Source: Capitulum mitella (Eukaryota > Arthropoda > Thecostraca > Pollicipedomorpha > Pollicipedidae). Taken from it: DNA of 64,000 nucleotides. The stretch lies in assembly GCA_030062745.1 (NCBI GenBank), contig CP099841.1:11164970-11228969 (forward strand), written 5' to 3'. Of this stretch, positions 9,575-62,520 are shown in pieces. The translations under genes and the position numbers were made by a program. The number at the start of each line of letters is the position of its first letter. Within the stretch, counting starts at the first letter, position 1. Below the pieces are notes generated by a model. It was not told the DNA's origin, made no database searches, and was given only the letters and a program-made list of their open reading frames with translations.

Positions 9575-10010
9575 CCATTCATATCCCTTTCCGCTGGGTG
9601 CTGCGGATGTAACCCATTCGCGGTGGGCACCCGGATATGACCTGTTTCCGGTGGGTGCTGTGAGACTGACCTGTTCTTGGAAGGTGATGCGGGTCTGACC
9701 CGTCCCCGATGGGTACTGCAGGTCTGGCCCCTTTCCAGTGGATATTGTGGGTCGGACCAGTTCCCGGTGAATACTGCTGGTGTATATTTGCTCCCGGTGT
9801 ATATTGCGGGTGGGACTCGCTCCCGGTGTACATTGCGTGTCGGACCCGTTCCCATAAGATATTGCAGATCCGACCCGTTGCTGGTGGATATTGCGGGTAT
9901 GACTCGTTTCCAGTTGATATTGCGGGTCTGGCCCGTTCCCGGTAGATAGTGCTGTTATGGCCTGTTTCCGGTAGGTATACAGTGCCGCTCCGACCCGTTC
10001 CCAGCCCGTG
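9575..10010. repeat. 29-bp minisatellite, about 15 copies
   Basis: Units of the form 'gacccgttcccggtgg' plus 'atattgcgggtc' repeat with an exact 29-base step at several points, for example unit starts at 9667, 9696, 9725 and 9754. Copies differ at several positions, and later copies vary by one to three bases in length. Because 29 is not a multiple of three, the long open frames seen here on both strands are by-products and not genes. Confidence 0.95.
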
Positions 10011-39805: not shown

Positions 39806-39911
39806 GGGAGTGCAATGCCGCCCTGGGCATGGAGTCGGGCGCCATCCCGGACTCGGCCATCACGGCCACGTCGTCGTTCGACCCGGTCCGGATCGGCCCG
39901 CAGCACGCAAG
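39806..39911 (+). CDS. Ddr: Ddr exon 2: start of discoidin domain
   Basis: The acceptor 'cctgtttcag' precedes and the donor 'gtgagt' follows. The reading frame gives 'ECNAALGMESGAIPDSAITA' and then 'TSSFDPVRIGPQHAR'. This matches the opening of the discoidin (F5/8 type C) domain of Ddr proteins (C-x-x-x-LGMESG-x-I-x-D-x-x-ITASS). Cys25 should pair with Cys181 in exon 4. The tryptophan that contacts collagen in human DDR2 (W52) is a phenylalanine here, in 'TSSF'. The exon has 106 bases, starts with the last two bases of a codon and ends with two bases of the next. Confidence 0.95.
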
Positions 39912-42439: not shown

Positions 42440-42672
42440 GCTGAACGTGGAGCGCGAGGGCGGCGCCTGGTGCCCCGACCGCCACATCAGTAAAGGCATC
42501 CGGGAATACTTGGAGGTGGACCATGGAGCGACCCCACGTCGTCAGCGCCGTCTCCGTCCAGGGACGCTTCGGCAACGGCCGGGGAGTCGAGTTCGCCGAC
42601 CAGTTCACCGTCGAGTACTGGCGGCCCGGCCTCACCGCCTGGCGCACCTACAAACTGTGGAACGGAGAACAG
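42440..42672 (+). CDS. Ddr: Ddr exon 3: core of discoidin domain, with one apparent extra base
   Basis: After the acceptor 'ctcgtttcag' the frame reads 'LNVEREGGAWCPDRHISKGI' and 'REYLEVD', then shifts by one base to 'PHVVSAVSVQGRFGNGRGVE' and 'FADQFTVEYW...LWNGEQ'. Both halves are clearly the Ddr discoidin domain. Without the A at about 42523 the joint reads V-D-L-E-R-P-H-V-V, which is what the family predicts. The exon's phases also work only at 232 bases instead of 233. The equivalents of DDR2 Arg105 and Glu113 (QGR and VEF) are kept; Asp69 is Gly. The donor is 'gtcagg'. The extra base may be an assembly error, a null allele or a real lesion. As the rest of the gene is intact, an error or rare allele is the likeliest explanation. 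Confidence 0.93.
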
Positions 42673-42824
42673 GTCAGGGGCGGAAAGTGTCGGCGCCGTT
42701 TGAATTCGAGCGTGGAACTCGTTATCATTTGGGTCTCGCCCAGGAGGTTGTCACTGTCGTGGACGACTGCGCTGGCGGCTGGGTACCCGCGGCGGCGGGT
42801 GACAATCCGTTTGCTCGCATCTAG
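42673..42824 (+). other. Ddr: Ddr intron 3 (152 bases)
   Basis: The only short intron of the gene. It is bounded by 'cag|gtcagg' and 'gcatctag|gta'. No repeat is visible. Confidence 0.85.
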
Positions 42825-42972
42825 GTACTGGCTGGCAACAAGAACAACTACCTGCCGGTGCGGCGCCAGCTGATGCCTCCCATCTTCGCGACCAAGCTGC
42901 GTCTGCTGCCGTACAGCATCTACGCCCGCATGGTCTGCATGAGGGTGGAGCTTCACGGCTGCAACAAAACAG
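42825..42972 (+). CDS. Ddr: Ddr exon 4: end of discoidin domain
   Basis: The acceptor 'gctcgcatctag' gives an exon in phase 0 that reads 'VLAGNKNNYLPVRRQLMPPI' and then 'FATKLRLLPYSIYARMVCMR' and 'VELHGCNKT'. The MVCMRVELHGC block is the hallmark end of Ddr discoidin domains. Cys173 and Cys181 are eight residues apart, as in vertebrate DDR2 (177 and 185). N182-K-T is a possible glycosylation site. The donor 'gtcagc' follows and the exon ends in phase 1. The preceding intron is only 152 bases, far shorter than the other introns. Confidence 0.94.
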
Positions 42973-45551
42973 GTCAGCTCGTGACGGCCATCTGCCGCAA
43001 CTGATGGATGTCTTGAGGCGCCAGTGATGCAAAGGTGTGCAATGAAGCAAGACATGCATAATGGGACGAAATGAAGGTTTGCTGATTTGACTTGGAGAAC
43101 GATGAGGACCGATCGATAAACACAGATGCCATCCTTGCTGAGTCTTTTGTTGAAATTTCTCCAGTGTGACCGGTTGTTTTTGACAGCTAAAGCCACTGAG
43201 TGACGAACGTGCGGTCTCCTCCAAAAGACCACACGTTATAAATCTTCTTATCAGTGATCTGTTGTAAAAGGTGACATTGTTATGAACAAGAACCCCGGGT
43301 TGATGCGTCTTCGTCGGTCATCACCCTGGTTCCTCTTGCCTGGCGCTGACAGACGTAAACCTTCACACCGGCTGCGGTCCTGCACCGTAGTCCATTCCCT
43401 GTCCTACGTCGTCCGTTATCAGGCGGCCGGGCACAGCGGAGGAAGCGCTCAGCGGCTAAAAAGAACGGCAGACAAAGCTGGCGGTTTCCAAAGACGCAGC
43501 ATGCAAACTCGGCAAAGTCCGGAAACTCGCAAACAGACTCGGAGTCGTCCAAAAACACGGCACGCAAACTCGGTGGTGTGTAAAAACACGGCAGACAAAC
43601 TCGGCGACGTCCAGGGAGTCGGCGCCGACAAACTCGGTGATGTCCGAAGTCGCGGCACGCAGGCGTTTCCGTGCTGACCGGCTCGCTTCGACGATGTGGA
43701 TCGCGGTCTCGGTCCGGGAACCCTGTGCCGTCAGCCTGCCCGATCTGCGCCTGTCAGGCTGCAGATGTCCGCCTGCAGTCTGGACCCGTGTCCAGCGGCA
43801 ATTTGTCTCTTGGCTAACGGGTCACTCTGCGGTTCCCGCATTCCTTTTTGTTCCCCTCGTCACGCTGTGTCGCCCTAATCCCTTCGTCCCATCCTCGCAC
43901 CTCCTTGTGATCCCGATCCTGATCCTGATGTATCAGATGAGCGTCGCCTGTTTGTGTTTCTCGTCTGTTGGCCTGATTTCGCCAGATGGGGAGGTATCTG
44001 TCAGCGAGCTCAGGTCCGCATTAATCCAATCCCTCGTCATGATCTGGTCCTGCACGCGTTCAAGCTGCTCCCATCCTGTTGCCCCAGCCACGCCGCGTGG
44101 TCTGTTCACCACCCGATGGCCCAATGCCTGCCGACGTGATCCCCAGCCATCACCCTAATCCCTGCCTGCCTAATTGCCTAATGCCGTCCGATCTTCGCGG
44201 CCTCAACCGTTGAGGCAGCATGAATCATCCGGCGCCAGCTCTTCCCGCCCTGGGTGCGGGGCGACGCGACTGGCATTTTGAACGGTTGACTGGCGTTTTC
44301 AATGCTCGAGGAACTGTCCGGTGCTAGACAGCTCTGAATAAACAAACTTCATGATTCAGAGAACACAGATGTCTGTCGTTTGCCGCAGACTATGGATGAG
44401 CTGAAACGCGTCGTCAGCTGTTGTTTTTTAATTACCATGGTAGCCTTGATCCATCCGCAAAAATTCCGATGTGCATCTTCGTCCACCACGTGTTCCATGG
44501 TTCATAGTCATGTGCCAGTGCAAGAAATCGTGTGGTATGCACTCGCATTTGGAAGGTGACATGACGTATTCGACTGCGGTCATAACGTGTCTAGCCGCAG
44601 AGCAAGTATCAGTGACGCAGTGAACGATGTTGACGCCTTTATGTTATTAAATCAAGCTATTATGCCAGACGCAATAGAAGAATCAACGCATTACCTCTAT
44701 CGTTTTAAGTCACCCACATTTTTAAGTGTCAGTATTACCATGTGGCTCTGCCCGCTGCGCCGCCTAGGATGCTGTACCCTGCTTATACCGTAGCTTACAA
44801 CATTCATAGGGTTCCGTTATGCGTGTAGGATTCTTAAGAATATGCAATGAGCGCCTTAGATATGTAAATTTCGAACTGACTTTGAAGTTAAACGGCAATA
44901 ACTGTCATTCCATTATCATCTAATGCGGCTCGGAAACATGCAAACTCCTTGCAAACGAAAGCACTGACCGTTCAGCTCACTGCACGACCGGATCGTCTAT
45001 ATTCAGTAGCACGCTCTGCGTTAGAGCATACGGCACCGGAATGCAAACCCACTGGCAACGCTTCTCAACGGCCATAACCTGCCGCTGGCCCACCTCCACA
45101 TCGTTTGATCGTGCAGAATTCGTGCGTCGGTGCGCTGGCTCACCGTAGGCCCCGCGACGGGTTATTTCACCGTATATCACTTCTCCCCACCGACGGGATG
45201 CAGTAGTGATTTTAACGTTTCTCCGACCGCACCGAAATCCGAACTTCACATTGTTCAGGGACGTATCGTGTCATGTCTACGTATCGTAGACAAGAGCGCT
45301 GTATTTAGGTATATAGCATGTAACAAAAGGGGTAGGCGTGCGGCTTGTATTTCGGTATGTAAGAGGCGGTAAGGATTGCATTTTTCGAATGCTCCTGAAC
45401 TTATACCACTTTGGAAAATGCCCGAAATATTGCTACCTCGCAAGGTTTGTTCGCCGAATGCTGAACATTCCTCGGTGGCCCGAGCCTTGTTTTGATTTTC
45501 TGTTCGTCCGTTTCGCCGTGTGGACGCCTGACAGCGCCTCGTGTCCTACAG
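42973..45551 (+). other. Ddr: Ddr intron 4
   Basis: 2.6 kb with a minisatellite at 43465-43665. The second half (about 44570-45480) is AT-leaning with short unrecognised frames. Nothing else is identifiable. Confidence 0.7.
43465..43665. repeat. 31-33 bp minisatellite (aaaacacggcagacaaactcgg)
   Basis: The phrase 'cggcagacaaactcgg' and variants recur about six times at intervals of roughly 30-33 bases. Examples lie near 43468, 43560, 43590 and 43627. The copies alternate in their 'gtcgtccaaa' or 'gacgtcca' filler. Confidence 0.85.
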
Positions 45552-45728
45552 ACGGCCTGCTCTCGTACTCGGCGCCGCAAGGGGAGACCCAGTGGCCGGG
45601 CGTCGAGCTCACGGACCGCACCTACGACGGTCTGCACAACCAGGGCCAGCTGTACGGCGGCACCGGCCAGCTCAACGACGGCACCTACGGCACCGACAAC
45701 TTCCGTCAGGACCACGGCTACGGCAGGG
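45552..45728 (+). CDS. Ddr: Ddr exon 5: start of discoidin-like domain
   Basis: The acceptor 'gtgtcctacag' is followed by DGLLSYSAPQGETQWPGVEL, then 'TDRTYDGLHNQGQLYGGTGQ' and 'LNDGTYGTDNFRQDHGYGR'. This corresponds to the family's DGLVSYxAPxG...L-D-x-x-YDG...G-x-GQLxDG-x-x-G-x-D-x-F segment. In human DDR1 this region includes the calcium-binding part of the discoidin-like domain. The joint to exon 4 creates Asp185. The exon has 177 bases, ends in phase 1 and has donor 'gtgagc'. Confidence 0.94.
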
Positions 45729-46659
45729 GTGAGCTCGCCGTCGACCCGTTCCACCTTGCTGCTGGAGGACGAGAGAGGGGTCCGGGGAAGCCAGTGTGGA
45801 TGTTCGCCGTGCTGGCACTGGGTGGTCGAAAATTAGTGCTGCGTGTGGGCTACTCCTCGCGTTGCTCGTAAGTGTCGCAGCGCGGACTGGTACGTCTCAG
45901 GCCTGACAGCAGGCTGCCTCTGGCGTGTGCTGTTCACTTACACCCGGAGTCGCCCCCCCCCCTTCCCGACAACGCGGCTGTAAGCTCCAGACAGCGAGTG
46001 TCCGGGGAACCGGGCGCCCGTGCAGATCCGCGTAACAAGAGCGGGCTGTTTACGCTGGAGGCAGTGTTGCCGCAACTCCAGTGATATGCGAAAGGAGCGC
46101 CGCTGCACGAGAGAAAACAAACCCGTCACGACGCATGATCGCTGTTTATAAACATTTATTCGTGACGGTTTTTGTTCGATTCGTTCCTGCTTTCCGGGGG
46201 AATGTGCATCGCGCGACTAACTCGTTAATAGTATGCACGCTCAGCAGCCTTCCCCACGTTTCTGTCGCGAACAGCCGCCAAGGCAATCAGCTCCAACGCA
46301 CATGTCGTCCTTTACACCTGCAGCAAACGAGGACGGGGCATCGATTTTCTCACGTGCCGCGTCTCAACCGATACTTTCTCCGTCCATAATCTCCATTACG
46401 GTGCGGCGAGCTCATTGTTGCCGCGTCCAGCGGGCCGTCCGGCCGGGGCTGGCCGCGGCGGCCGCCCCCCGGCCGTGTACCAACACATTAGTCCCGGCAT
46501 GTCATTACTCGCGGCCGGACGGCGCGCGTTCCGGCGCCGCGGCCCGATCGATCACGGCTTACGCCTCTGCATACATCGCCAGAGCATGGCAGCGTGGCAG
46601 TCCGTCGGACCGTAAATTCCCTCGCGCGGCGCGCGAACGCGGCCCACGGTCGGCCCACC

Positions 46660-47015
46660 GGCACAGCGCAGCACGGCCAGGCCTGGCGCTTTGTGAGGAC
46701 AGCATGGCCGTGTCCGGCGCGGTGTGAGGACAGCATAGCCGTGCCCTGCACTGTGTGAGGACAGCATGGTCGGGCCGGCGCTATGTGAGGACACCACGGT
46801 CGGCCCGAGCGCTGTGTGAGGACAGTATGGCCAGGCCGGCGCTGTGTAAGACACCACAGTCGGCCCGAGCGCTGTGTGAGGACAGCATGTTCGGACCGGC
46901 GCTGTGTGGAGACACCACGGCCGTGCCCGGCCATGTAGTGTGAGGACACCACGGTCGGGCTCGCGCTGTGTGAGGACACCACGGTCCGGCCTGGCGCGGC
47001 GTGAGGACAGCACCG
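46660..47015. repeat. 30-31 bp minisatellite (gtgtgaggacagcatggtcgg)
   Basis: About eleven units of 'ctgtgtgaggacagcatggtcgggccggcg' type lie head to tail with 30-32 base steps. Two versions, 'gacagcatgg' and 'gacaccacgg', alternate in part. It lies in Ddr intron 5. The long minus-strand frames here are periodic artefacts. Confidence 0.95.
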
Positions 47016-49229
47016 GGCCCTGCCGCGCGTGCCGTTCTCGCGCCGGCAGCCGGCCGATCCCCGATGGATATTAGCCGGCCGAGGGCCGTGTATAGCGGTC
47101 TGGGCCGGCGGTCGTGATTGGATCTCAGTCGTGCGCCGATATTGCCGCGCCCGGCCCCGGCCGATCGTCCGAGAACGCAATCAGCCGGCGGCGCGCCGCG
47201 TGTCCAAACACGCACCGCGCCCGGCACCGGCGTCCAAACACCCTCCCCCGGGACGAGGGACGGCGTCCAAAGCTGACCACGCGTCTGGAGACTCGCTGGA
47301 AATCGAAGACTCGCTGCATCTCGTCTTCGTGGGAGGTAGAATCGTGGTCAGAACGGGAATGTTAGCCACGGTTAAATGGTAACAACTGCATACCGCGGAC
47401 ATGGGAATCAGATGGGATGGGAATGAGAAAGGATGACAATGGAAAGGCGACCAAAAAAGGTAAAGCACTTCAGGCATGAACGAACAAAATGGGACAGAGC
47501 AGAGCGTGGTGGCGGAAACTGACCCTCTCCGCAATAAAACCATAAAAACCGGTGGATCGTGCACCAGCAGCCGGACGCACCCCGGTGCCGCTGTTTAGAA
47601 AACCGGAAATTGCGCATTGGACTCGGCTTGATCTAGTTACCGTGTGAAGTAGGCGCTGTCCTCCTAGAACGCGATGTGGCTGGCAAACGGCGATAAAATG
47701 TGCTCTATAATGAAGCACATTTGCACTTGAGTTGTGCCTGATTGGAATGTAGCCAGGCCTAGAAAGTTTGCATTGCAATGCAATGCAAGATGACACTCAT
47801 GCAAACCACATATGACTTAGTGACGATGAAATATGGCAGTTGAAGGTAATGATGATGTCGTGCGTAATGCTAATGAAGGAGACAATAAAACGGAAAGTTA
47901 TATGCGGTTATAAGACAGCTAAATCTATGTTGGCACTGCACTTCATTCTCCAGGAGCAGTGAATCAGTTGTCAGGCAGACTGAAATGGCTCCGTTTTCCC
48001 AGCTATCTTTTAATGACTGTCATGGAAAACCCTTGTGTCCGAAAAAATCTTATGGATCTGACGACAGTGAAACATAATACTGGGCGGCCGTGGTGGCGGG
48101 GGGGGGAGGGGGACAACTGGTGCAGCGAAGTTAACCTTGTCCTTGCAAACTATATGTCTAATTCCGAAACCTTGACGAACATTGTGGGGACACAGAAGTT
48201 GCGGGCCAATGCCTCCCTCCCCCTCTCCTGCTCCCTCCCCTCCGCATTCCTACGCCTATGCATGGCATGCCACTTATGCAATACGCCGACATGTTAAGAC
48301 TCAAATAGCTTTTTAATTGCCCATGCTTCATGTTGAACTGCTTCTTCAGGATCGTTTATTCAGCTACAACCACTTTATCATCGCAGTCAGTCCAGCTCAG
48401 GCCCGCAAGAGGAAAGTTTTTCTCGTGACATGTCATGTAAGCATGTCTCTTCTTTATTACATCCGGATACAGCCACGCCTAGCATCAACAGTACATCCAT
48501 CCGAGGCCGACTTGCTGCCTGAGCTATACCATCGGCCAGGCCTGCCGTAGCTCTCCATCTTCCCTGACACTGCAGCCATCGCCAGCCGTGACCACCCCAG
48601 GGGGCTGTGAGTTATTGTGAGTTATCGTGGGCCGCGGCCGGGCGTCTCCGACGGCTGAACTCAACTCAGAGTCACTCGCACTGCCCAGTCTCTCCGATAG
48701 GGCTCAGCTACTCGTGGTCTCGCTGACGACCGGGGGCAGCGAAGGCCGAGAAGTTCAAGCTCATCATGGCTCTGGCATAGATGTCAGGCATGGCTCTGGC
48801 GGTGGTCTCGCGGTCCGCACAATGGCGAAGCGATTTTTTTCGTCGCTTGGTTTTAAGCTTTTTCCCTGTCGCACGCTTGCATTTGGTTTATGCCTGATGT
48901 CATTTCTGTGACGCCAGAAAATTAATGTTAAATTTCCCCGGTACTGTAGCTGATTGTTACTTCTGAATATCTTGTGTTTGCGTTAACGGTGCGGTTGCTT
49001 TCAGGAGGTTTGATGCACCTGAAACAATTCGTTTGCCTTCGGTGAAACACAGGATTTCGTACGATTCTTTTCACGAATTCGGTCGTTCGCTGGCCACCCA
49101 TTGAATCGCCTAGCCTATGCCATTCAAACGACATCAGCCGCGCTCCCTATTTTCGGCGATTGTGACGCAGCGGGCGCCATTCGTCCGATTCCGTTTATCG
49201 CCTTTAAAATCCGCCGCATGCTCTCTCCT

Positions 49230-49232
<3 letters not shown>

Positions 49233-49287
<55 letters not shown>
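49233..49287. repeat. (CT)n microsatellite, about 27 units
   Basis: A pure CT run of about 55 bases in Ddr intron 5, flanked by 'ctctcctt' and 'cctccgg'. It explains the repetitive serine/leucine or arginine/glutamate frames seen on the two strands. Confidence 0.98.
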
Positions 49288-49290
<3 letters not shown>

Positions 49291-50478
49291 CGGCGCGCCT
49301 TTCTTGCCAGCGCTGGTTCGGGCCGAACATTTAGATCGTCGGAGCGGATTTCGCCTCCAGTCCCGTCTGAGACCCTCTGAGTGGGCGGACCCTTTGAGAC
49401 GCCTCCGCTCGCGGCAACGGCCGGCTTCGAACACAAAAGGCGGCCGCCGCTCGACCGGACAATGGCCTCCTGTCGGCGCCGCGTCAGATAAGCCGCATTT
49501 GACGAGCTGCGCCTTTTTTGTCGCCGTGCGCGTCCCGGCCCCTGTCATTCAGTTTACACTGCGATGTCCCGACTGCGCGCCGTTTTGAATTAATTGCTTT
49601 GATCAGTTATGCGAAGATGGGTCGGCGCTCTGATTGGCGGGTAATAGGATTCTGTGACGTCAGCGGGCAGCTGGCGCGCCGCAGCTGGCGCGCCGCGGCC
49701 GTCGCCGGCGCTGCGGCATCCTGCACTCAGCCGTGATGTCCCCCCGCGGGGAGGTGCGCCGTTCCTGAGGGGGTGACGTCCGTCATCTGGTGCTGCTATT
49801 CTCGGCCAGACTCGGCGACCGAGGCGCTAACCCGTGCGGGCGGGCTTCTTCGCTGAAATGAATCATCGCGGGCGACAAGTCCAGGTTCAAAGACAAAAAA
49901 GAAATGGAAATAAGATCTCTTTGGCAGTACTGATGATCACCGCCCGCCAGTGTTGGCACATGCTGACTCGGATACTTGCGGTGCAAAATAATTTTGGACC
50001 ATGTTTGTATATGTGCATAAATGAACTGACGGCCGTGGTCCTGGCCGCGGGCCACATAGTCCCGCTGACCTGTGACCTCGGCAGGTGCTCTGCCGCGACA
50101 GGGTCACGTCCCAAGGGGGTCACTGAAAGCGCTTCCCGCTGGGTGTGACGTGCCGGCGGCTAATACGCCGGACGTCCTTGTGACGTATGAAAAACACGGC
50201 AGCCCTGTGTCCACACCGAGCTGCGCCAGCCCTCGCCCAGGGGTCCGACGCGCGGAGGCGGGCGAAAACACGGAGTTGAAACGTTCCACTCGGACGCAGG
50301 GGTCGAGCGCTTCGCTCTTGCGGGAGATTGAAAACGCAGAACTCACCCAGCGGAGGCGTACCTTCAAAAGTTAAATGCATTGTCTATGATCAGCAGATGT
50401 TGCGGTGTGCGTGTTTGAAGCGTTCCCTTCGTTGCAAAGGACGCATTCGCATTACCTTCGCCTGTTTGTGCTTTTCAG

Positions 50479-50609
50479 GGTTCGAGTGGGTCGGATGGAG
50501 GAACTCGACAATAGGCGGCACTCTGGAAATGACGTTTGAATTCGACGGGGTTAGAAATTTTTCAGAAGTCATCATTCACACCAACAACGATCATCAGAAA
50601 GACATCAAG
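50479..50609 (+). CDS. Ddr: Ddr exon 6: middle of discoidin-like domain
   Basis: The acceptor 'tgtgcttttcag' leads into 'FEWVGWRNSTIGGTLEMTFE' and 'FDGVRNFSEVIIHTNNDHQK', closely matching the family's VGWRN...G-x-x-E-x-x-FEFDxVRNF segment. N252-S-T and N270-F-S are possible glycosylation sites, and the first is also present in human DDR2 (WRNES). The exon starts with two bases completing Gly244 and ends in phase 0 at donor 'gtaggg'. Confidence 0.95.
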
Positions 50610-51019
50610 GTAGGGCATTGGAAGCACTGGCACTGATCTTTTACGACGTTTTATTGAACTGTTCCCTCTGCAACGATTTAAAGTGTGACCGCATTATGGT
50701 TAGATGGAAACCTTTAGTTGTTTAAATAACAAAAATGGCCTTTCTATGAGGTTATTTAAGTTTCTGCCGTGTTATTTATGCTCAGCAGCATACAGCAGTG
50801 TTTGCTTCATGACGTAATACTCATATGACCTCATTAAATTTTCTGAACTCCTGACCCGGACGTCACGTAACTAAATTTAAATTGCGTCAGCGGACTGCAT
50901 AATCGGAACCAGATTACGTTGCCATCGAGCCGGGCATTCGGAAGCGCTCGCGACCGTGTCGCGTGCAAAAGCGGTATTGGTCTCCCAATACGCTGAGTCC
51001 GTTAGCGATACGTGTTGTT

Positions 51020-51049
51020 ACCTGATTCAGCGATATCGCTGAATCAGGT
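51020..51049. repeat. Perfect 30-bp palindrome without spacer
   Basis: The half 'acctgattcagcgat' is followed directly by its exact reverse complement, with the centre 'gat|atc'. Fifteen matching base pairs with no loop are unusual for chance DNA. The palindrome does not extend further, because the next outer pair (t and g) mismatches. No flanking direct repeat was noticed. Confidence 0.98.
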
Positions 51050-51179
51050 GACAGCCAGGTCAGCCAGGCCGTGGTCGAATGTTGCCCTCACGTCTCACCT
51101 CACCCCACCTGCCTTCACCACCGCCACCAAAGAACTGCTTAGGATCGTTCCTGTACCACCGTCACCTACTGTCGTTTCG

Positions 51180-51440
51180 CCCTGAGTTGTCTCTACCAGC
51201 CCGCTCTCAGTTCCTGTCCCAGTCCCGATCTCGGTTCTAGCTTCTGTGTCAGTCCTGATCGCAGTCGCAGCTTTGTCGTTTCCCCTGCGCCATCCTCAGT
51301 TCCTGCCCCAACCACGATCCCTAGCCCCCGTCCGAGCGCTTCGATCCCAGCCCCGGTTCCTATCGTAGCCCTCTCCAGTCCCAGCCCTAGTTCCAGCCCC
51401 AGCTCCTGTCCCTGGCCCGGTCGTGCCCTCAGCGCCGGCT
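51180..51440. repeat. Short-period repeat (CAGTCCC/CAGCCC)n
   Basis: Imperfect repetition of 'cagtcccgat', 'cagccccggttcc' and 'cagcccc' over about 260 bases gives a roughly 6- to 12-base period. The minus-strand frame rich in Gly-Thr-Gly-Ala is its translation, not a gene. Confidence 0.85.
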
Positions 51441-51577
51441 TCAGGTCGCGTTCTTCCGCCCCCGGAGCTCAAGAACACGGTCTTGACCTGGACCAGCGGC
51501 ACTGTGGCCAGATTTACAATTTTTGGTTGGAAATGACACCTAACCACGAAAAGAGGTGCATCCCAGCTGTGTAAATA

Positions 51578-51610
51578 CTACTAATAATAATAATACCAAT
51601 AATAATAATC
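51578..51610. repeat. (AAT)n microsatellite
   Basis: Interrupted run of AAT/ATA trinucleotides, about ten units, in Ddr intron 6. Confidence 0.95.
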
Positions 51611-52079
51611 TAAGCATTATTTTGGCGGCAAATAACATGTACCCAGACCCTGAGCTGCATCGTAGCAGTGCAGGATCCAGTCATAATGCATCTCCCCCCA
51701 AGGATTTTGACATCCTTTGGCAGTTTTTATACCTACGCGCCTAATCAGAAATAGATTTCTGAATATTGTGTGGTTGGAAATCTTTATTTTTACCATGGTT
51801 GCTGAAATATTTACATCCTTTCGTTCTGCAAAATCCTGACACCCAGTGTCAAACAAATTAGGCCACACTAACCAGCGGTCGCCCGGGCCTGGCGGCCGGC
51901 TGGTGACAACCCACTGCCGTCCGACCAATCACCTTATCCCAGACACCGAGCGCTGTCCGCCGTCTCGCTGTCGCCGGACCTCTCGCTCGGCCCGGCCGTG
52001 TCCCTGGGCTCGAACAATGGCCGCGTGCCTGTGCGCGCGGGCCCGTGCGTGCCGCTGACCGTCGCCGCCGCGCCGGCAG

Positions 52080-52287
52080 GTGTTTTCGTTGGCGCGACTG
52101 ACCGGCTCGGTGGGGGGACGCCACTTCAACACGGAGCCGGTGATCCACTACACCATGGGCGGCGACCTGTTCGACCAGGCGCGCAACGTGTCCGTCAAGG
52201 TGCCGCACGTGCTGGCCAAGCACCTGCGCCTGGAGCTGCAGTTCGCCGCCGGCTGGATGCTGGTCAGCGAGGTCACCTTCCTGTCAG
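52080..52287 (+). CDS. Ddr: Ddr exon 7: end of discoidin-like domain
   Basis: The acceptor 'gccgccgcgccggcag' has a weak pyrimidine tract but the phase is correct. The frame reads 'VFSLARLTGSVGGRHFNTEP', 'VIHYTMGGDLFDQARNVSVK' and 'VPHVLAKHLRLELQFAAGWM', ending LVSEVTFLS. This matches the arthropod-type Ddr segment ARNVxxKxxH...K-x-x-x-L-x-FA-x-x-W-M-x-SEV-x-F. N323-V-S is a possible glycosylation site. The donor is 'gtgggt' and the exon ends in phase 1. Its GC content is markedly higher than that of exon 6. Confidence 0.95.
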
Positions 52288-54439
52288 GTGGGTCATTCAC
52301 TGGTCGCCGGGGGTTGGCCGGGCCGCCCGGGTCAGCGGCGTCGTCTGAAGGGACCGGAGAGTGACGGTACGTGGTTGGCAGGAGCGAAGGAGCATACAAA
52401 ATAGAGAAACCAAACATAGGGCTTTCCCATAGGTGCAATATCAGGATTCCAAAAAGTGGGGGTTTTGGCCCCCACCACCAACCCTACGCCTATCGTAGAT
52501 GGGACGGTTTGGCGGGTGATATGAATTAGACCACGGCGTTGGCTGAGAGAACCTGAGACGGCGTCAGAGCGGAAGGGGTTGGCGTACGGTTGGAGCTAGT
52601 CAATGGACGGCCCGGTTCAGTGCGAGGATTCGGTGGGACCGCAGTCCGGCCAGCCGGCGTCACGTCTGGCAGAGGGGGCGGGCCGCTGCGAATCCCAGCT
52701 CGGCCAACCGACCGGCCGGCCGAGGGCGCCGAGCCGGCCCGGCCGCGGCAGAACCCGTTCGGCGGCGCACGCGCACCGGGCCGCGCACGTGCGCCGAACT
52801 GGACCGCTGTCATGTAGCGCCGCGCAGAGCGTGACGGAGATGTGCAAACAGGCAGAACGGCGCGGCCGGCGGCGGCGGCACCTGGAGACGGGCGCCAGCC
52901 GCCCTGCCTCAGCCGGCGTTCCGGCTGCCCTGTGTACCTGATTACTGGGCTGCCGATGTGCCCGAGTTACCGAATGGGTACCCGATTACCCCAGCTGCCC
53001 GGCCGCCGGCCTGCTGGGGACGCCGACCAGCTTGGCCATATTTTAGACCTCTGTGAAGGGCAGCCTTCAGTTCACGGGTCAGCCCCCGCGTCACCTGGCT
53101 CTTTTGCGGTCTGATTGTAAGCGTTTCTGAGACGCCAAGGTCTGCGGACAGAACAGTGAAAACACAGCCGAAACCCTGAAAGCGGGGTCCTTTTAAGGCG
53201 CCGTACGCGACGCTCCAAACCGGGCGCCGCCATCACAGTCCAGCGGCCGTCAGGCGCGAGCGCGGCGCGACCTCCGAGGACGGGTCGTCCCGCCGCGCCC
53301 TGGCGCCGTCCTTCACACAGCCCGACACACGGGACACGGCCTCAGTGCCAGTCAGGACACGGGCCACGAGACGCGCCGCCCGCGCTCGCGCCGCGGAACG
53401 CACGGCCCGGCCGGCTGACGCGGGAGGAGCGGAATTAAACGCGCTGCTCCCCCGAATAGCCGGCCATATTCGGCACCGCAAAAAGGCCGCGACGTCCGCC
53501 GGCGGTGTCGGGTGAAGCCGGCGCCGTAAATCTCACTCAGGGAGAGAGGACCCTGTGCTGTCACGTGATGGCAACGTCACAGCGTGCTCCGAAATGCTGA
53601 AAAACTGGGCCTGAAACCGCTGATAAATGTCACTCAACGCTGTTTTCCCGGGCGATGCAGTGTAGCCTTCAGGGGCTGGCCACAGTCAGAGCAGAGCCCT
53701 TTGGTATCCGTCGCAGGAAACTGGGCCGAGCTGTGTCTGAAAATCGGGAGGCGCAGCAAACGTCACAGAGGTCTGATTTAGGGCGACAGGAGCGCCAGCT
53801 GGCAACTGTCAGCATCAGAGGAGCGGCTAGGGGCAACTGTCGAAAACATGGCGGCCGTGGAGGGGCTAGCGGTCAACCGTTGGTAGCGCAATGGACAGTG
53901 GTGTTACCAGAGGCAACTGTCTCCGACTGGTCGAAACGTGACGTACCGTTAATGGACACGTCGGCAGCAGTGATAAGCACGGCCTTCGATGCCATTTCGT
54001 GTCCTCTATTGCCTTCAAAGAGCCAGCGGAGGAAGTGAATCGTTCAGTAATGCCCGCGCACTCCTCTGTTGAATTCCAAGCTGCTCCGGGCGAGGTCGGC
54101 TACACGGTCCACGAGGAGCGTCCGTCTGTGTCGGTTACACGGCCCGCGAGCAGGCTCGGCCTGCGGCATAGTTTGCAGTCGGCTCTGTGCACACGCCGGC
54201 CCTGTTGAGACAGTGCCGCCCGTTTTTACCCCCCCCCCCTCCATCCGCCGTCGCTCCATCCCCTCTCGACTGCGTACAATGAGAGGCCGGCAAAAACGCC
54301 GGCCGGTGACTCAGTATTCGCGGCGCGCGGCGGCTGCCCGGCTGCCGGCTGAGTTTCCAGAGGAGGGGAGAGGCCGACTGATTGCAGTTTGTCCTCCCGA
54401 CCAGCGTGAAATGCCGTCTGGGAGCGGGCCGACCCGGCG

Positions 54440-54720
54440 GCGATAGCTCAGACGCGGAGGACAGGACCCGGAGATGACAGGTCGGACGCAGACAGGGCCT
54501 GCGTGCACTAGCTCAGGTGGACAGGACGTGAAAACGGCACTTCAGACGCAGAGGACAAGACCTGAAGACACCAGCTCAGAACGGACGAAACAGCTTAGAG
54601 TCGGAGAACAGGATCTGCAGAGGACAGCCCATAAGCAGAGGACGTCATCTGGACACAGCACCTCAGACGCAGAGGAAGGGACCTGGAGACAACGGCTCAG
54701 GCTCGCAGGAAAAAGCCGGG
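54440..54720. repeat. Degenerate minisatellite (cagacgcagaggacaggacctg)
   Basis: The phrase 'cagacgcagaggacaagacctg' and variants recur about eight times with irregular spacing of 30-45 bases. Examples lie near 54449, 54483, 54544 and 54665. It lies inside Ddr intron 7. Confidence 0.8.
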
Positions 54721-55074
54721 AGAGCAGAATAGGCTAGACGGGATCCCAGCGCACACTTGGAAAAGACTGAAGAAAATGTCAGGTGGTGTTCCCGCAGTCC
54801 GCGCAGTGCCGTCATATGATGTCGCTGGGATTCATCTTTGCTGATGTCAGACAGGGATGTCGATTTGCATTTTTTTTTGGAGGACCCTGGCCCACTCAAT
54901 GTTGATTTGGGCCCCAAATGTTGGTTTGACACCCCCAATATTTTTTGCCGGTTTCAGAGGGAAATGACTAGTAATAAAGAAAAGAACGGCCGCATTGGAT
55001 AAGAGATGGACAGAAAGTAAAAAACTAAATCTAAAGCAATGTATCCATCTATCTTTCTATCTTCTGCATATAAA

Positions 55075-55143
55075 TAAATAAATATATATACACACATATA
55101 TATATATATATATATGGAAGGTTAGGTATATATATATATATAC
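55075..55143. repeat. (TA)n microsatellite, interrupted
   Basis: TA-rich runs 'aaataaatatatatacacac' and 'atatatatatatat' flank 'ggaaggttagg'. It lies in Ddr intron 7. Confidence 0.95.
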
Positions 55144-56764
55144 CTGTATACATTGAGTAAAATCAATTTTTTATTTGATAAATGGTAAAAAAGTATAAAT
55201 TTCCGTTGGTTTAATTAAAGTGGGCTAAATCCGTTGATAAATCCACGTTTGGGGGAGGTTAGGTTGTCGGGTACTCGCCTCGCCCCCCGCCCCCCTCCCC
55301 AGTCATTAACAGAAATAAACAGCCCTGATGTCAGGTGTCGGTGCAATTTAGAGTACCAGCAGTTAACGAAGCTTTTAGAACATCGTGACAAAATACGTTT
55401 TTCTGGCTATTTTTTATTCAAAGCAAGGTGTGCATTTTTTGAATAAATTATGAAGATTTCGTGTCCTGGTAATGTGCGATCAGCCCTTTGAAAGCATGGC
55501 TGAAGATTTCCGGGAGTGAATGGGGAGGGAGTGGGTCCACACAGGATTTCGGACCGTTTTTTCAATCATTGCTATGGGTCTAATTTTAAAATCCCTGAAT
55601 ATTTGGGTGTCCGAACCACTCCCTCCCCCGTGATCGCCAACCATGCTTGAAAGGTCCAGTCATGGACAGTCATATTGCAAACCGAATACATTCTGCGCTC
55701 AGTTATAGAACATTTTCGGGAGGCTGGAGGAACCGACCAACCGAAAGAAAGATCAAGACATATCTCTCGTACCACCAAATGATCTGGAAAACACATTGCA
55801 ACAGCGCACATCCGCTCTTGCGTTGCGATATCTTGACCGGCATCAAGATGGCCGGGGAGTGGCCACCTGATGAGTATGCCTGGTCACCGTCCCTTTCACG
55901 CAGCACATGCAGCCCCGTCACACCCTCTTCTGATCTGGCCGCCCAGCCTTGGAGCTGTGATGAGCCGCTCGCCCTATCGCAGCATCAGAGCTGGTGCAAC
56001 CACGCCTCGCCTTTGTGCGTCGATCGAATTCGAGCTCGCTTTTTCTGTTGGTCGCTTAACCCTGCAGCGGCCACGTCCTGCCCTCTCGGACATCAGGTTG
56101 TCCAACGCCTTGAACCAATGACCATCAGAGTCGGCTGCCAGCTTCACCGCTCCTCCCGCCTCATCCCTCGCTGTCGACCTATTGACGGCCCTGTCGGACA
56201 CAGTTCCGGCCGGCCGGGGGTCTTATCGGACCATCAGTTCACTGCGCACGCGGCCGGGCGTGCGTATGCTCCCCGATAGGATGTTCCGTCTCAGCTGGCC
56301 CGTTCCCATCCGGCAGGTCGTCCTTTGTTTATCTCTCGCCACCGCCGTAGCTCACCTCTGTGTGAAACAGCGCAACGTAGTGCGCCCGCGCCCGCCGCTC
56401 TTGAAACAACACGCGCCAGGGTGCGTGGGAACGGGCTTTTAAATCCAACATCCTGCGCAGATCATGTATATCATGTGCGTGGCGATTCACCTGTTTTATT
56501 CCTTCACCAGCACGGTCGACTGATCGACCCTCGCGGTGCGCTGGCTGGGCTGCGCGAGGCCGGTCTCTGTTGGTGACCGCGGTTCGCGCGCGTCCTGCTG
56601 CGGCGCGGCCCACTCGGGGCAGACACGCGTAAACTGCGCGCACGTCGGCGACTCTGTCGCCGGCACGGCCACGCCCTCCTCTAATTGGGTCCATCCATCT
56701 GGCCAGCACAGCGCGACCCACGCAGCAGCGACGGCCGCTGTCGGCCGGACTGGGCGGCGGCCGG

Positions 56765-57000
56765 ACCCGGCAAGCGTGGCAGAAGATATACCCCGACAGA
56801 CGGGACGGCAGAAAACACACCCACGGCGGACGGGACGGCAGAAAACGGACCTAGAAGACAGAACGGCGGAAACAGGCCCCAACGTGCAGGACTTCAGGAA
56901 CCAGGCACCGATAGACCGCACAGCAGAAACAGCCTGGCTGAAGACACGGCAGAAAGCTGACAGGTGCGGGAGGACGCGGCGGAAAACCGACCCGTAACAA
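56765..57000. repeat. Degenerate minisatellite (gacgggacggcagaaaac)
   Basis: Variants of 'gacgggacggcagaaaaca' recur about seven times, with the clearest step, near 36 bases, between about 56800 and 56836. Later copies are diverged. It lies in Ddr intron 7. Confidence 0.8.
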
Positions 57001-57471
57001 CTGGAAAATAAAGGGCGACTGGTGCAGACGGGTTCAGGAGCAAAGCAACACTTGCCGGGCGTCTGCAAAAGTAAAGTAGAACGTGAGTGTAGAAAAGAAA
57101 GAAAGATACGTACAGCACTGGTCAAGTCGATCGTGCTACAGAAAGGCTGATCCAGAGTCCAGCGGGACGGATGAGCTGTAGACCAGCAGGGCGGGCGTGT
57201 AGAGCGCCAGTGGGAACCGTGACTCCACTGGCCTGGCCCAACTGCCCGCCAGCCGCGGAGCCGACGCCAAGGTGACCACCATGAGACGAACAGGCCGGGG
57301 TGGGAATCGGTCAGAGATGACTTCACGGTGCAAGCAGCCCGTACGATAGGGGGCGACTGATGTGGTTTGTGGTCTCGTGACTTGGAAAAGTCATCCCGAG
57401 ATTCTCGTGCAGCAGGTCTTTGTGTGGAAAGGTCTGATAATATCGGAAAGAAGCTATCCCTGCCTTACTGT

Positions 57472-57491
57472 TCATCATCATCATCATCATC
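57472..57491. repeat. (TCA)n microsatellite
   Basis: Six to seven TCA units in Ddr intron 7. Confidence 0.9.
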
Positions 57492-59711
57492 AGAGCGGAC
57501 ATTTCCACTGAAAATGACGAAGGTTATGAAATGAGAGAGAAACACCGGGGCGTTCAATACTGAAGGCTGTCGCTGTTGACCACGCGGTTCATTTTCGGTC
57601 TTATTATTCGAAGCGCCCAAATGTAAAGCATTACAATGTTTTGACTTGGTGTTCTTGTTCTGCTCCGTTCACGATACTGCTGAAGCAAACTGTGGTGGCA
57701 GTGCGGTGCCACTACACCTGCAGTTGCTGTTATATCTACCTTCGCTGGCGTGGGTTCTGCGACCGACTAACGACGTGTCTCTGAAACATCGACCTTTGCT
57801 TGGAAAAACCTTTTCCGTTCTTGTCTAGAATATTTCAATAGACTGGCGTCCCAACTGAAACCGAAGTGTAAGATGATGTATGTCTCTAATCTCAATATCA
57901 TTGTTTTTAAAGGGAATGCTCCTCTTTCAACCTGTGTTTTGAGTCACTGCACGCAGGTTCTAGTTAGCAGTCTTTTGAAGTCCGCTTCCAATATGCATTA
58001 TCGAAAATGATATATATATATATATGTGGAATGTCAAGGCCTATCCATCGTGTCCTTCTCAGCCATGTCCATGTGTCAGATGCAGCGCGGCTTGATGAAC
58101 AGGTACAAACCAATAAACGTTAGCAGAAATTTCACAGTGTCATATCAGCGGATGACTCAGGAACATGGCTTTTGATTAATCGCGTGCACCGATGGTTTAG
58201 GTACTTGACAGAAAACTGAGTGCTTGAAAACGTAGTCAGCAACAGTTTTTGACCGATCGAATCTGTCTGAAAAAAAAAACACTGAGATGGAGCACTCCCC
58301 TTGGAATCAGTGAGGCTTTTACGGCGCAGCCCACACATTTATGACTGATTTCACTTCCATTCGTGGACTTCAGTAACAGCCGTGTTTTCCACGTTTACTT
58401 ATTTAAAAACATTGTGTGTGGTCCGCAATAAATCGGCCAAATGTCCGAACCATTTTATCCACCATTTCCAATCGTCTTTTTATGCGACAAGGTGACCATT
58501 TTGATGACAATTACGAACGCAAAGCGCGGGGACCTTCATAAAACAGCCGGACGTCCTCCCGACATTCTCCGTGGCTCCATTACCAACCAGCCTGGTATCG
58601 GCGTAAAAGCGTGCCTCTCTGCTCGAGGGAATCGTTCTGCTTTGGCGGCCGTCGATCGTCTAAATGCCGAACGCCGCCAGCCTCGCGGGGTCGCTCATTT
58701 CTATTCTCCGCAGCACCGCGTTCATTTCCTGGACTAACAAGCGGCGCTGGCAGCGGGAGGGGAGGCGGACGCGAAAGGCAACAGCCTGCAGCGTCGGGGG
58801 GGCCACTCCCTGGCTCCGTGTTCCTCGCGCTGCCGTCGTCCGTCTCCGCTCGGGTCTGCGAAAGCTGCGGAAATGCTGCCGCAGCTGGCAGTGGCGACGC
58901 AGTGGGCAGCTTTAGGCCGGGCAACAGCATGGGGTCTTTTGTGCAGCTCCGGTGAATATTCATCAGCCGATGACGCCGGCTGGCAGTTGTTCAGTGGACG
59001 CAGCCGCTTAATCGGTTGATTTGTGACCGTGAATGGACTGGGCGGAAGAGGTCCTCACCGGGACACGAGCACCGCCCCCGACCGAGTTCGTAACGCGCTC
59101 TTGCCCAACGGTGTCGGTGTCGGTGAGCCGGCTCCGGCGCCGGACCGTAGGGCTTCGCCGTCCGCGGGCCGACACGCGCCGGCGGCGACGCGTCCCGCCG
59201 CTGGCCGCGGCAGGAGCAGCTGCGTCCGGCGCCGACCGACCAGGCGGAGCGCAGAACCGCCGCCGGCGGTCTTGGGCCGGCCTTCGGCGGGCGGTCAGCT
59301 GTCGGCGCCAGGCCGGCCGGCGCTCGCTCGCGGCTGACCGATGTCGGGGCGGGAGCACGACTTGTCTGACGCCTGTATCATATCAATAGGGCATGTCCTA
59401 GTCGCTGGACGGGCGAAAACAAATCGGCGTGTCCTCGGGAGTGGATGTTTCGGGCGATGCGGATGAAAAACAGGATATCGTGAGATATTGGCTCATTTGG
59501 GGGTAGGACAAAGATCAATGTCGCATTCTACGGTTGTGTCGTGTACATGATATACCGCCAACGTAGATGATGATTTGTCCGCATAAAACCGAAGTAACCT
59601 AGCGTGTGTTTATTACACTTGTTGAATAATGACCCCGGTTGACATGCCCGTGTGCGTGACCAGACGTCGCTGTGCTCCGCTGTGACCGGTTGTGACCGTC
59701 TGTGTGCGCAG

Positions 59712-59810
59712 AGCTGGCTGAAGGCAACTTCTCCGCGGAGAGAGGACCGCTGCTCGGAGAGAAGGCCATGGTGGACAGCGGCAGCCGGGATAGTGCCGGT
59801 CAGAGAATCG
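59712..59810 (+). CDS. Ddr: Ddr exon 8: extracellular linker, donor embedded in a 30-bp minisatellite
   Basis: The acceptor 'gtctgtgtgcgcag' is followed by ELAEGNFSAERGPLLGEKAM and VDSGSRDSAGQRI. The joint to exon 7 makes LS-E-LAEG, placing it just after the discoidin-like domain. There Ddr proteins have a variable, poorly conserved extracellular juxtamembrane linker, so the assignment rests on position, phase (1 in, 1 out) and open frame more than on sequence. N362-F-S is a possible glycosylation site. The donor 'cagagaatcg|gtgagt' at 59811 is the first of several similar donors carried by the tandem array that begins at the end of this exon. The next exon should encode the rest of the linker and the transmembrane segment, downstream of the window. 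Confidence 0.7.
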
Positions 59811-60135
59811 GTGAGTACCGCACAGCCGTACTGAGGACCGGTGAGTACCGCACAGCCGTACTGAGGACCGGTGAGTACCGCACAGCTCGACAGAGGATCG
59901 GGGAGTACCGCACAGCTCGACAGAGGATCATGGAGTACCGCACAGCTCGACAGAGGATCGGGGAGTAAGTACCGCACAGCCGGGCAGAGAATCGGTGAGT
60001 ACCGGACAGCCGGACAGAGGATCGGGGAGTACGATACAGCCGGACAGAGGATCCGGAAGTGCCGGACAGCGGGACTGAGGATCGAGGAGTACCGCGCAGC
60101 AGGACAGAGAATCGGGAAGGGCCAGATGGACTGAG
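59788..60135 (+). repeat. 30-bp minisatellite built on the exon 8 splice donor
   Basis: About eleven to twelve units of 'cagagaatcggtgagtaccg' plus 'cacagccgta' type start within the last bases of Ddr exon 8. The step is exactly 30 bases at the left end. The motif gtgagt recurs at 59811, 59841, 59871 and 59995, and a gtaagt lies at 59965. In the remaining copies the GT is changed (for example gggagt, tggagt, ggaagt). The frame of exon 8 stays open through the first five units and ends at a TAA at 59966-59968. Units become more diverged to the right. Confidence 0.93.
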
Positions 60136-61135
60136 AACGATGAGTTATCGGAAAGCCAGTCAGAGATTTGGTGATTTATCGGACGAACAAACAAAGACAA
60201 AAATCATAGAGCTGACATTGAGCTGATATCGGAACAGTTTTGGGCGATCAATGCAGTGAACTTGAACAGACAGCAGGATCGTGTAGCCCTGGTGGGAGAC
60301 GGAATGTGACCGATGGGTACTGGCCACTAGCCCCTCTCCCTTCTACACAGGCGCCGATTTCCCAGACAGACCAACTCCGCGCCGATCGAAGAACGTTTCT
60401 CGGGAGCCAGTTGAAGTTGCCCGATTTGTGTCGTCAGCTGGCCTGTGGGCTGGTGGTTTGCGGAGAGTACAGAGCGTGGGCTGTATGGTGGAACCTGCCG
60501 GGAATCGGAGGCGTCCCCGGGGGCAGACCGTTCGGTGGGATCAGGGTGCCATTGTACCACGCGACGAGAGCGATCAGCCGCCCCTGGTCCGTCCGCCGTG
60601 GTCCCTTGATGGCCCAGCCTGATTCGGTGGCCAAGGGACCAATAGCGCTGCTGCCATCAGCTAGCTGGGGCTTGTGATGTCAGCTGCAGTCATATCTGCT
60701 GAACTCCCGCCTACCGTTCCGTAGTGAAGACGTCAATTGTCGTCATCCCGGCCACGTCACCTGGCGCATCTACACGGACACTGGGCTCGCGTGTTACGCG
60801 CAGCGCCGGCTGCCCACCCAGCGGCCGGCTTGACCCGTGGCGGCCCACGTGTTCCGGGCACGGGTGGTCTGCCTCGTGTCAGCCGGCGGGTGACGCGGGC
60901 CGCGGGCCACGCAGCTCTCGTTTGTCGGACCGGCGGTGGCTTATGTTCATCCCGGGCCCTGGTCGGCCGAGGACGGCGTCAGGTGGGCTCTGTCCCCACC
61001 TGTGCCAGCCCGGTGGGCCGTCGCTGAAGAGGACAGTCTGAGGGCCAGCACAGACACAGGAAGAGTGATGCAAAGGAGTCAGTGAGAAGTGTAGCTCAGT
61101 ATAGTCGTGCCGTGTAGGATTGACGAGGAGTTTTT
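60136..61135. other. Ddr: Start of Ddr intron 8, no further exon seen
   Basis: The 145-codon frame at 60240-60677 has no transmembrane segment or kinase motif and no fitting splice sites, so I do not take it as an exon. The sequence is otherwise unremarkable. Confidence 0.5.
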
Positions 61136-62154: not shown

Positions 62155-62520
62155 CTGGCACTGGAGGAGGTGCCGCTCGGGGCAGGGGAGGAGCTGCCGC
62201 CCGGGGTAGGGGGTTGCTAGTCGGGGCACTGGAGGAGCTGCTAGCCGGGTAATGGAGGAAGTGCCGGCGGGGGCAGGGGGGGGGGGGAGCTGCCTGTCGA
62301 GGTACTGGAGGAGCTGTTAGCCGGATAGTGGAGGAGCTGCCGGCTGGGGTAGTGGATGAACTGCCTTTCGAGGCAATGGAGGAGGTGTCACGGCCGGGGC
62401 ACTGGAGAAGCTGCCGGCTGGGGCAGGGGAGGAGCTGTCTTTCGAGGCAATGGAGGAGGTGTCACGGCCGGGGCACTGGAGAAGCTGCCGGCTGGGGCAG
62501 GGGAGGAGCTGCCGGTCGCG
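62155..62520. repeat. About 25-bp minisatellite with a 74-bp higher-order repeat
   Basis: Units of 'actggaggagctgccggccggggc' type recur about fifteen times. A nearly identical 74-base block that begins 'ctttcgaggcaatggaggag' occurs at 62365 and again at 62439, so triplets of units were duplicated recently. A G-run interrupts the array near 62276-62287. Confidence 0.93.

What the first reader, a model, noticed from the sequence alone, without database searches (positions are those of the whole stretch)
59788..60135. A 30-bp minisatellite repeats the splice donor of Ddr exon 8 in frame
The end of exon 8 is itself the first unit of the array. Matching gtgagt donors at 59811, 59841 and 59871 are exactly 30 bases apart, so choosing the second or third donor keeps phase 1 and adds 10 or 20 residues (EYRTAVLRT-type) to the extracellular linker of the receptor. 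The frame stays open for about 52 codons into the array and then stops at 59966. Later units have mostly lost the GT. This is a plausible way for array length and unit sequence to tune the spacer between the collagen-binding domains and the membrane, and individuals may differ in it.
Basis: partly seen in the sequence, partly recalled or inferred. Interest (0 to 1): 0.8.

Follow-up and report, generated by a model that had tools for sequence, protein, structure and literature searches.

The report
Repeated splice donors in barnacle receptor
In a barnacle collagen-receptor gene, a 30-base stretch at the end of one exon has been copied head to tail, so the signal that marks where the exon ends occurs several times and could give slightly longer versions of the protein, probably with little effect.

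Summary
The window holds ectodomain exons of a barnacle discoidin-domain receptor (Ddr), nearest to Pollicipes (82% identity). Exon 8 is 59712-59810 (99 nt, phase 1-1). Its last ~20 nt plus the intron start recur as a 30-bp minisatellite (59789 to ~60200). The transmembrane exon, found outside the window (window-equivalent 67150), starts in phase 1, so donors 59811, 59841 and 59871 keep frame and add 0, 10 or 20 residues. All three pair equally with U1 (-10.8 kcal/mol). Pollicipes protein models show exon 8 ending at the same residues (GQRI), so 59811 is probably ancestral. No RNA evidence could be had. The "tuning" idea is weak: human DDR1 tolerates 15-16-residue insertions in this linker (PMC4036362), the array shows no frame-specific constraint, and tandem repeats cover ~4% of the window. 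Tandem repeats at exon-intron boundaries are a known kind. Best reading: a recent, largely neutral donor-replicating minisatellite, probably giving some in-frame length variants.

The parts
39806..39911 (+). Ddr exon A, start of the discoidin (DS) domain, donor GTGAGT at 39912 (start approximate)
   Evidence: tblastn of DDRs; sequence; donor
42440..42672 (+). Ddr exon B (DS domain), with a frame break at 42522-42525
42825..42972 (+). Ddr exon C (end of DS domain), approximate ends
45552..45728 (+). Ddr exon D (DS-like domain)
   Evidence: Pfam PF21114
50479..50609 (+). Ddr exon E (DS-like domain)
   Evidence: Pfam PF21114
52080..52287 (+). Ddr exon F (end of DS-like domain, ...SEVTFLS G|), phase 1 donor at 52288
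   Evidence: Pfam PF21114; PDB DDR1 matches
59712..59810 (+). Ddr exon 8 (99 nt, phase 1-1): E-LAEGNFSAERGPLLGEKAMVDSGSRDSAGQRI-(G), extracellular juxtamembrane linker with an NFS motif
   Evidence: Pollicipes P0061 carries the same exon, 55.9% identity, E 4.7e-4; splice joins
59789..60200 (+). 30-bp minisatellite; the first partial unit is the exon-8 tail; 13 further units (one of 34 nt, one of 25 nt), the last three the most degenerate
   Evidence: TRF, unit list, tail homology
59811..59816 (+). donor 1 (probably ancestral), GAATCG|GTGAGT, +0 residues, U1 -10.8 kcal/mol
   Evidence: exon end shared with Pollicipes protein models
59841..59846 (+). donor 2, GGACCG|GTGAGT, +10 residues (GEYRTAVLRT), in frame, U1 -10.8
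59871..59876 (+). donor 3, GGACCG|GTGAGT, +20 residues, in frame, U1 -10.8
59965..59970 (+). GTAAGT, apparently made by a 4-bp AGTA duplication in a unit; use would frameshift exon 9; U1 -7.9
59966..59968 (+). in-frame TAA, made by the same apparent 4-bp duplication
59995..60000 (+). donor 4, GAATCG|GTGAGTACC, same 15-nt context as donor 1, U1 -10.8; use would include the TAA and truncate the receptor before the membrane

Best explanation
The 3' end of Ddr exon 8 and the first bases of intron 8 were duplicated head to tail as a 30-bp minisatellite, so copies carried the exon's 5' splice site. Because 30 is a multiple of 3 and the exons on both sides share phase 1, donors 59811, 59841 and 59871 are interchangeable for the frame. 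I infer that U1 cannot tell them apart, so transcripts are a mixture with 0, 10 or 20 extra residues in the flexible linker before the membrane, and that this is largely neutral by-product variation that the receptor tolerates, not a tuned device. Units further in have diverged, and a 4-bp slip there made a stop codon. Shown: anatomy, phases, equal donor pairing, homology of exon tail and units. Supported, not proven: 59811 as ancestral donor and the direction of duplication (protein models of Pollicipes, no DNA). Inferred: use of donors 2 and 3, neutrality.
For: Phases and translated joins for each donor. Equal U1 duplex energy of -10.8 at the three donors and at 59995, a value reached by 0 of 425 GT in the preceding intron and 0 of 447 GT in intron 8 after the array. 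Exon tail homologous to the units. Pollicipes exon 8 ends at the same residues...GQRI|A. Linkers of 27-93 residues in 137 of 181 relatives measured, this one 46/56/66. DDR1 tolerates 15-16-residue insertions in this linker (PMC4036362, passages). No frame-specific constraint between units. Precedent that tandem repeats at exon-intron boundaries can give alternative splicing (PMC2812944, passages).
Against: No transcript was available: three protein searches (67 listed, 120 of 544 listed, 1 listed) showed nothing above 83% identity, so no protein of this species with or without the extra residues. Two barnacle models leave exon 8 out: Pollicipes P0001 and Amphibalanus P0069, which also lacks the end of exon F; they may be skipping or poor models. 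The -10.8 pairing is not extreme among real donors: 4 of the other 12 Ddr donors pair more strongly. Donor 59995, nearer to the 3' splice site, might win, which neutrality would not allow.
Confidence: 0.55

Rival explanations
1. Only the ancestral donor 59811 is used; exon context fixes the choice and the array is inert intronic sequence.
For: The exon end at 59811 is the one shared with Pollicipes models. Tandem repeats are common here: a hand-merged list of 21 TRF arrays of period 8 or more covers 2,616 of 64,000 bp, so one touching an exon end is not very surprising.
Against: Donors 2 and 3 have the same intron side over 15 nt and equal U1 pairing; donor 1 has no advantage in its last three exon bases (TCG against CCG).
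Confidence: 0.3
2. The donor nearest the 3' splice site wins or competes: 59871 becomes the main exon end, or 59995 is used in part and gives a truncated, secreted or NMD-destroyed receptor (a poison-donor arrangement).
For: Donor 59995 is as strong as the others and follows the in-frame TAA. In human DOK7 intron 4 the intron-proximal of two competing 5' splice sites is preferentially selected, and SRSF1 suppresses the distal one (PMC5585400, passages). A Pollicipes gene model (P0001) ends after the ectodomain.
Against: In DOK7 the proximal site is also the stronger one, so the case does not isolate position. Strong use of 59995 would destroy the receptor and should be selected against; no transcript seen. 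The Pollicipes model ends in a different tail (AGALNGSRRQLEL), not in array peptide.
Confidence: 0.1
3. The array is a selected device: donor choice and array length set the spacer between collagen-binding domains and membrane.
For: Exact multiple of 3, three in-frame donors, phase 1-1 exon.
Against: DDR1 linker insertions and deletions are without effect on activation (PMC4036362). No frame-specific constraint. A unit length divisible by 3 has a one-in-three chance. Conservation in relatives untested.
Confidence: 0.04
4. The array or its unit number is an assembly artefact.
For: A frame break in exon B shows either local indel errors or a real allele.
Against: Most units differ from each other by substitutions (two are identical), and the DNA search found the locus once in the genome; a collapsed or expanded unit number remains possible.
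Confidence: 0.01

Closest known systems
Internal tandem repeats at exon-intron boundaries of human genes in segmental duplications (PMC2812944; passages read)
   Same: Minisatellites, on average 30-bp units for the variable ones, some at an exon-intron boundary; they alter splicing or add repeated residues.
   Different: There the reported effect at boundaries is formation of novel introns in recent primate paralogs, with transcript evidence; here a receptor gene in which the exon's own donor is repeated in frame, without transcript evidence.
Human CBS 31-bp VNTR at the exon 13-intron 13 boundary (short passages in PMC5188458 and PMC1395315; the primary paper is not held)
   Same: A ~30-bp minisatellite at an exon-intron boundary; more repeat units are reported to go with lower enzyme activity.
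   Different: 31 is not a multiple of 3, so shifted donor use would change frame; here 30 keeps it. That CBS units carry the donor is recalled, not seen.
Alternative 5' splice-site choice between close donors, e.g. DOK7 intron 4 (PMC5585400; passages read)
   Same: Two competing donors with choice by U1 and SR proteins.
   Different: There the two donors differ in strength and the alternative transcript is frame-shifted; here three donors have identical intron sides and keep frame.
DDR family receptors (human DDR1/DDR2, arthropod Ddr)
   Same: DS and DS-like domains, linker, transmembrane segment and kinase exons were found.
   Different: 0 of 137 measured linkers of relatives contain EYRT, AVLRT or QRIG or any repeated 6-residue word.

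Membership tests
Discoidin domain receptor (DDR) | DS domain (F5/8 type C) | tested here: met
   Exon B matches PDB DDR2, E 4.7e-5; assembled ectodomain 82% identical to a Pollicipes DDR over 90% of the query. Pfam PF00754 alone stayed below its cut-off on the single exon (14.7 of 28.2 bits).
Discoidin domain receptor (DDR) | DS-like domain PF21114 | tested here: met
   53.6-59.4 bits on three exon frames, cut-off 27.
Discoidin domain receptor (DDR) | single transmembrane segment and tyrosine kinase domain | tested here: met
   Transmembrane exon at window-equivalent 67150 and kinase exons 74.6k-89.9k, outside the window, by hydropathy and tblastn.
Exon-intron-boundary minisatellite (VNTR) | tandem array of minisatellite units overlapping an exon end | tested here: met
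   TRF 59795-60115 and exon tail homology, 0 of 20,000 shuffles.
Exon-intron-boundary minisatellite (VNTR) | unit number varies among individuals | not testable with these tools
   One assembly held, one match.
Tandem alternative 5' splice sites | two or more close donors of comparable strength in compatible phase | tested here: met
   Three in-frame donors, equal U1 pairing, phase-1 acceptor exon.
Tandem alternative 5' splice sites | more than one donor used in RNA | not testable with these tools
   No reads; the protein searches listed no protein of this species.

The most novel reading that the evidence does not exclude
The array is a splice switch that a minisatellite keeps re-making: donors 1-3 give membrane receptors with a linker of variable length, while donor 4 (59995), behind the in-frame stop, gives a secreted or degraded ectodomain. 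Array length and unit sequence would then set the ratio of signalling to decoy collagen receptor among individual barnacles.
Probability: 0.05. Interest if true: 0.75.

Novelty: new member of a known kind. Interest (0 to 1): 0.33.

Why it matters
It is a clean natural experiment in 5' splice-site choice: four donors with the same GTGAGTACC, three of them 30 nt apart and in frame. Junction reads would show directly how far position alone picks the donor. It also shows how a minisatellite can lengthen a protein without a frame cost. For the receptor itself the effect is probably small.

Tried and rejected
Selection for the repeat as coding sequence: pN/pS between ten units was 0.57 in the exon-8 frame and 0.82 and 0.51 in the other two, so no frame-specific constraint. 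The units have few or no stops in any frame (0, 3 and 5 stop codons in ten units), so the open frame (51 codons into the array) is weak evidence; open frames of 67 and 89 codons lie in the other two frames.

Selective purging of the GT in later units: donor position +2 is 5 T, 5 G and 1 gap among 11 core units (60140, 60171 and the exon tail were left out), but another column is more variable; not supported as a special signal.

RNA structure: exon 8 plus the first 200 nt of the intron fold no better than shuffles (z = +1.74; 188 of 200 shuffles fold at least as well).

Rarity of GTGAGT at 30-bp spacing: 547 places (261 + 286) in the 477-Mb genome against 413 (215 + 198) for the reversed-pattern control. 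Only the first places (C1, C2 and part of C3) are printed. Among those, chained triples besides ours were C1:19338802/832, C2:8838083/113/143, C2:27967210/240 and C3:13784572/602. By eye, the C2:8838083 one begins at an exon-like end and has four CAG|GTGAGT (TRF); the C1 one lies in a larger array (TRF), the C2:27967 one too by eye; the C3:13784 one has dissimilar units. A second pattern with CAG before the donor never ran: the machine was busy.

Linker repeats in relatives: none found, 0 of 137 measured linkers; 44 of 181 proteins were dropped (32 without the anchor motif, among them Amphibalanus P0069; 12 without a detected membrane segment, among them Pollicipes P0001 and P0061).

Species: a thoracican barnacle by protein hits. 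Capitulum mitella (16 chromosomes, longest 45.43 Mb, assembly 463.09 Mb; PMC8416341 passages) resembles G000 (16 contigs, C1 45.52 Mb, but 477.04 Mb in all); identity was not tested.

I make no claim that this array is absent from print; the paper searches on the point cover one open-access library and returned nothing on it in the listings seen.

Full report
What the window is. The window is G000:C3:11164970-11228969 of a 477-Mb, 16-contig genome. The + strand from 39.8 kb holds ectodomain exons of a discoidin-domain receptor (Ddr). Three exon frames match Pfam DDR1-2_DS-like (PF21114) at 53.6-59.4 bits against a cut-off of 27; exon F matches DDR1 chains and exon B DDR2 chains in the PDB. The assembled ectodomain is 82% identical to a Pollicipes pollicipes protein over 90% of the query and 67% to the Amphibalanus amphitrite receptor. 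I fetched 39.6 kb of the same contig from window-equivalent 59031 on. It contains the transmembrane exon (67150-67340) and kinase exons between 74.6 and 89.9 kb, so the gene looks complete in its main domains, apart from a frame break in exon B (42522-42525). I did not look for a signal-peptide exon.

Exon 8. Exon F ends ...SEVTFLS-G| at 52287. Exon 8 runs from 59712 (after ...gtgcgcag) to 59810, 99 nt, phase 1 to phase 1, and reads E-LAEGNFSAERGPLLGEKAMVDSGSRDSAGQRI-G|. Pollicipes P0061 has the same exon, EPAVGNFSDETGPLLRETALEGGGRAGDGQRI|A, directly after ...SEVTFES; Pollicipes P0001 has the same tail (AGALNGSRRQLEL) without it, which fixes the exon end in the Pollicipes models. The Amphibalanus model P0069 also lacks exon 8, together with the end of exon F. 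So exon 8 is real in Pollicipes models, its end matches donor 59811, and it may be a cassette exon or badly modelled.

The array. TRF reports 59795-60115, period 30, 10.6 copies; my list has 13 units after the exon tail, to ~60200. The last 22 nt of exon 8 match the units in register, best 17 of 22; 0 of 20,000 shuffles reached this (2 of 20,000 reached the summed match), nor did any of 1,193 22-mers upstream of a GT in 39000-59000. With the Pollicipes exon end in hand, the simplest history is that the exon-intron junction itself was duplicated; without Pollicipes DNA this stays an inference. Units 59811-59840 and 59841-59870 are identical, so this part is recent or homogenised.

Donors. GTGAGTACC stands at 59811, 59841, 59871 and 59995, and GTAAGTACC at 59965. 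Duplex energy with the U1 5' end is -10.8 kcal/mol at each of the four GTGAGT sites and -7.9 at 59965. None of 425 GT in the preceding intron (52300-59700) and none of 447 GT in intron 8 after the array (60200-67130) reaches -10.8. Among 12 other Ddr donors, located as the best-pairing GT at each exon end, 4 pair more strongly (-11.5 to -11.9) and 8 more weakly, so exon 8 has a good but not extreme donor. Joined to exon 9 (phase 1, |CG ACG TCG), donors 1-3 give ...QRI-ATSAEGD......QRI-GEYRTAVLRT-ATSAEGD... and the same with two repeats. Donor 59965 puts exon 9 out of frame; donor 59995 includes the TAA at 59966. Both the TAA and GTAAGT look like products of one 4-bp AGTA duplication in the unit at 59961.

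How it most likely works. Sequence gives the spliceosome little reason to prefer one of donors 1-3: the intron side is identical over 15 nt, and within the three last exon bases only -3 differs (T or C). Position can matter: for DOK7 intron 4 the intron-proximal of two competing donors is preferentially selected and SRSF1 suppresses the distal one, though there the proximal site is also the stronger (PMC5585400, passages read). I therefore expect a mixture, without being able to say which donor dominates. The extra residues fall in the extracellular juxtamembrane linker. In human DDR1 that region tolerates insertions of 15-16 residues and deletions of 11 with normal collagen-induced phosphorylation (PMC4036362, passages read). 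In 137 of 181 fetched proteins (mostly arthropod) the distance from SE[VI].F to the membrane segment could be measured: 27 to 93, median 46. By the same rule this receptor has 46 with donor 1, 56 with donor 2, 66 with donor 3 and 13 without exon 8; 25 of the 137 have 60 or more. So the extra residues lie inside the family's range. The variation is probably tolerated, not tuned. Between-unit pN/pS gives no sign of coding constraint in the exon-8 frame.

Is it unusual? By a hand-merged list of 21 TRF arrays of period 8 or more, tandem repeats cover 4.1% of the window. Pairs of GTGAGT 30 bp apart occur 547 times in the genome against 413 for the reversed pattern. Another array with four CAG|GTGAGT units lies at C2:8838083 (L043). 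So donor-bearing 30-bp arrays recur here; what is special is the exon supported by homology, the in-frame period and the equal donors.

Against what is known. Tandem repeats at exon-intron boundaries that change splicing have been described for human genes (PMC2812944, passages: average unit 30 bp), and the human CBS gene has a 31-bp VNTR at its exon 13-intron 13 boundary, with more units reported to go with lower activity (PMC5188458 and PMC1395315, short passages; the primary paper was not held). This is a new member of that kind, with the variation that the unit keeps the reading frame.

Limits. No RNA, no second individual, no Pollicipes genomic DNA. All statements on donor use are inference. 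The three protein searches (67 listed, 120 of 544 listed, 1) showed nothing above 83% identity, hence no protein of this species; the third found only a relative of the transmembrane exon (P0181).

Noticed in passing
window 42522-42525: Ddr exon B changes frame between EYLEVD and ERPHVV; Pollicipes P0001 reads through there. Assembly indel, allele or damage.
   Followed up: partly
L043:2580-2694 (G000:C2:8838083): A 30-bp array with four CAG|GTGAGT donors that begins right after ...GTCTCCCCAG: a possible second donor-replicating minisatellite, perhaps at a 5' UTR exon. No exon evidence.
   Followed up: partly
P0001 and P0061 (Pollicipes pollicipes): The public Pollicipes annotation appears to split Ddr into two odd models: an ectodomain without exon 8 and without a membrane segment, and a kinase fragment placed before exon F and exon 8.
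   Followed up: no
G000:C2:451934-452140(-), C3:2411420-2411641(+), C2:31119369-31119581(+), C3:2490622-2490828(-): Further DS-like exon relatives (32-39% identity), probably Ddr paralogs; not read.
   Followed up: no
window 9688-9978, 40393-40598, 46669-47013, 62157-62515: Other GC-rich minisatellites; the window is rich in them.
   Followed up: no
window 59531-60175 (- strand): A 215-codon open frame runs antisense through the array; most likely only because the unit lacks stops.
   Followed up: no
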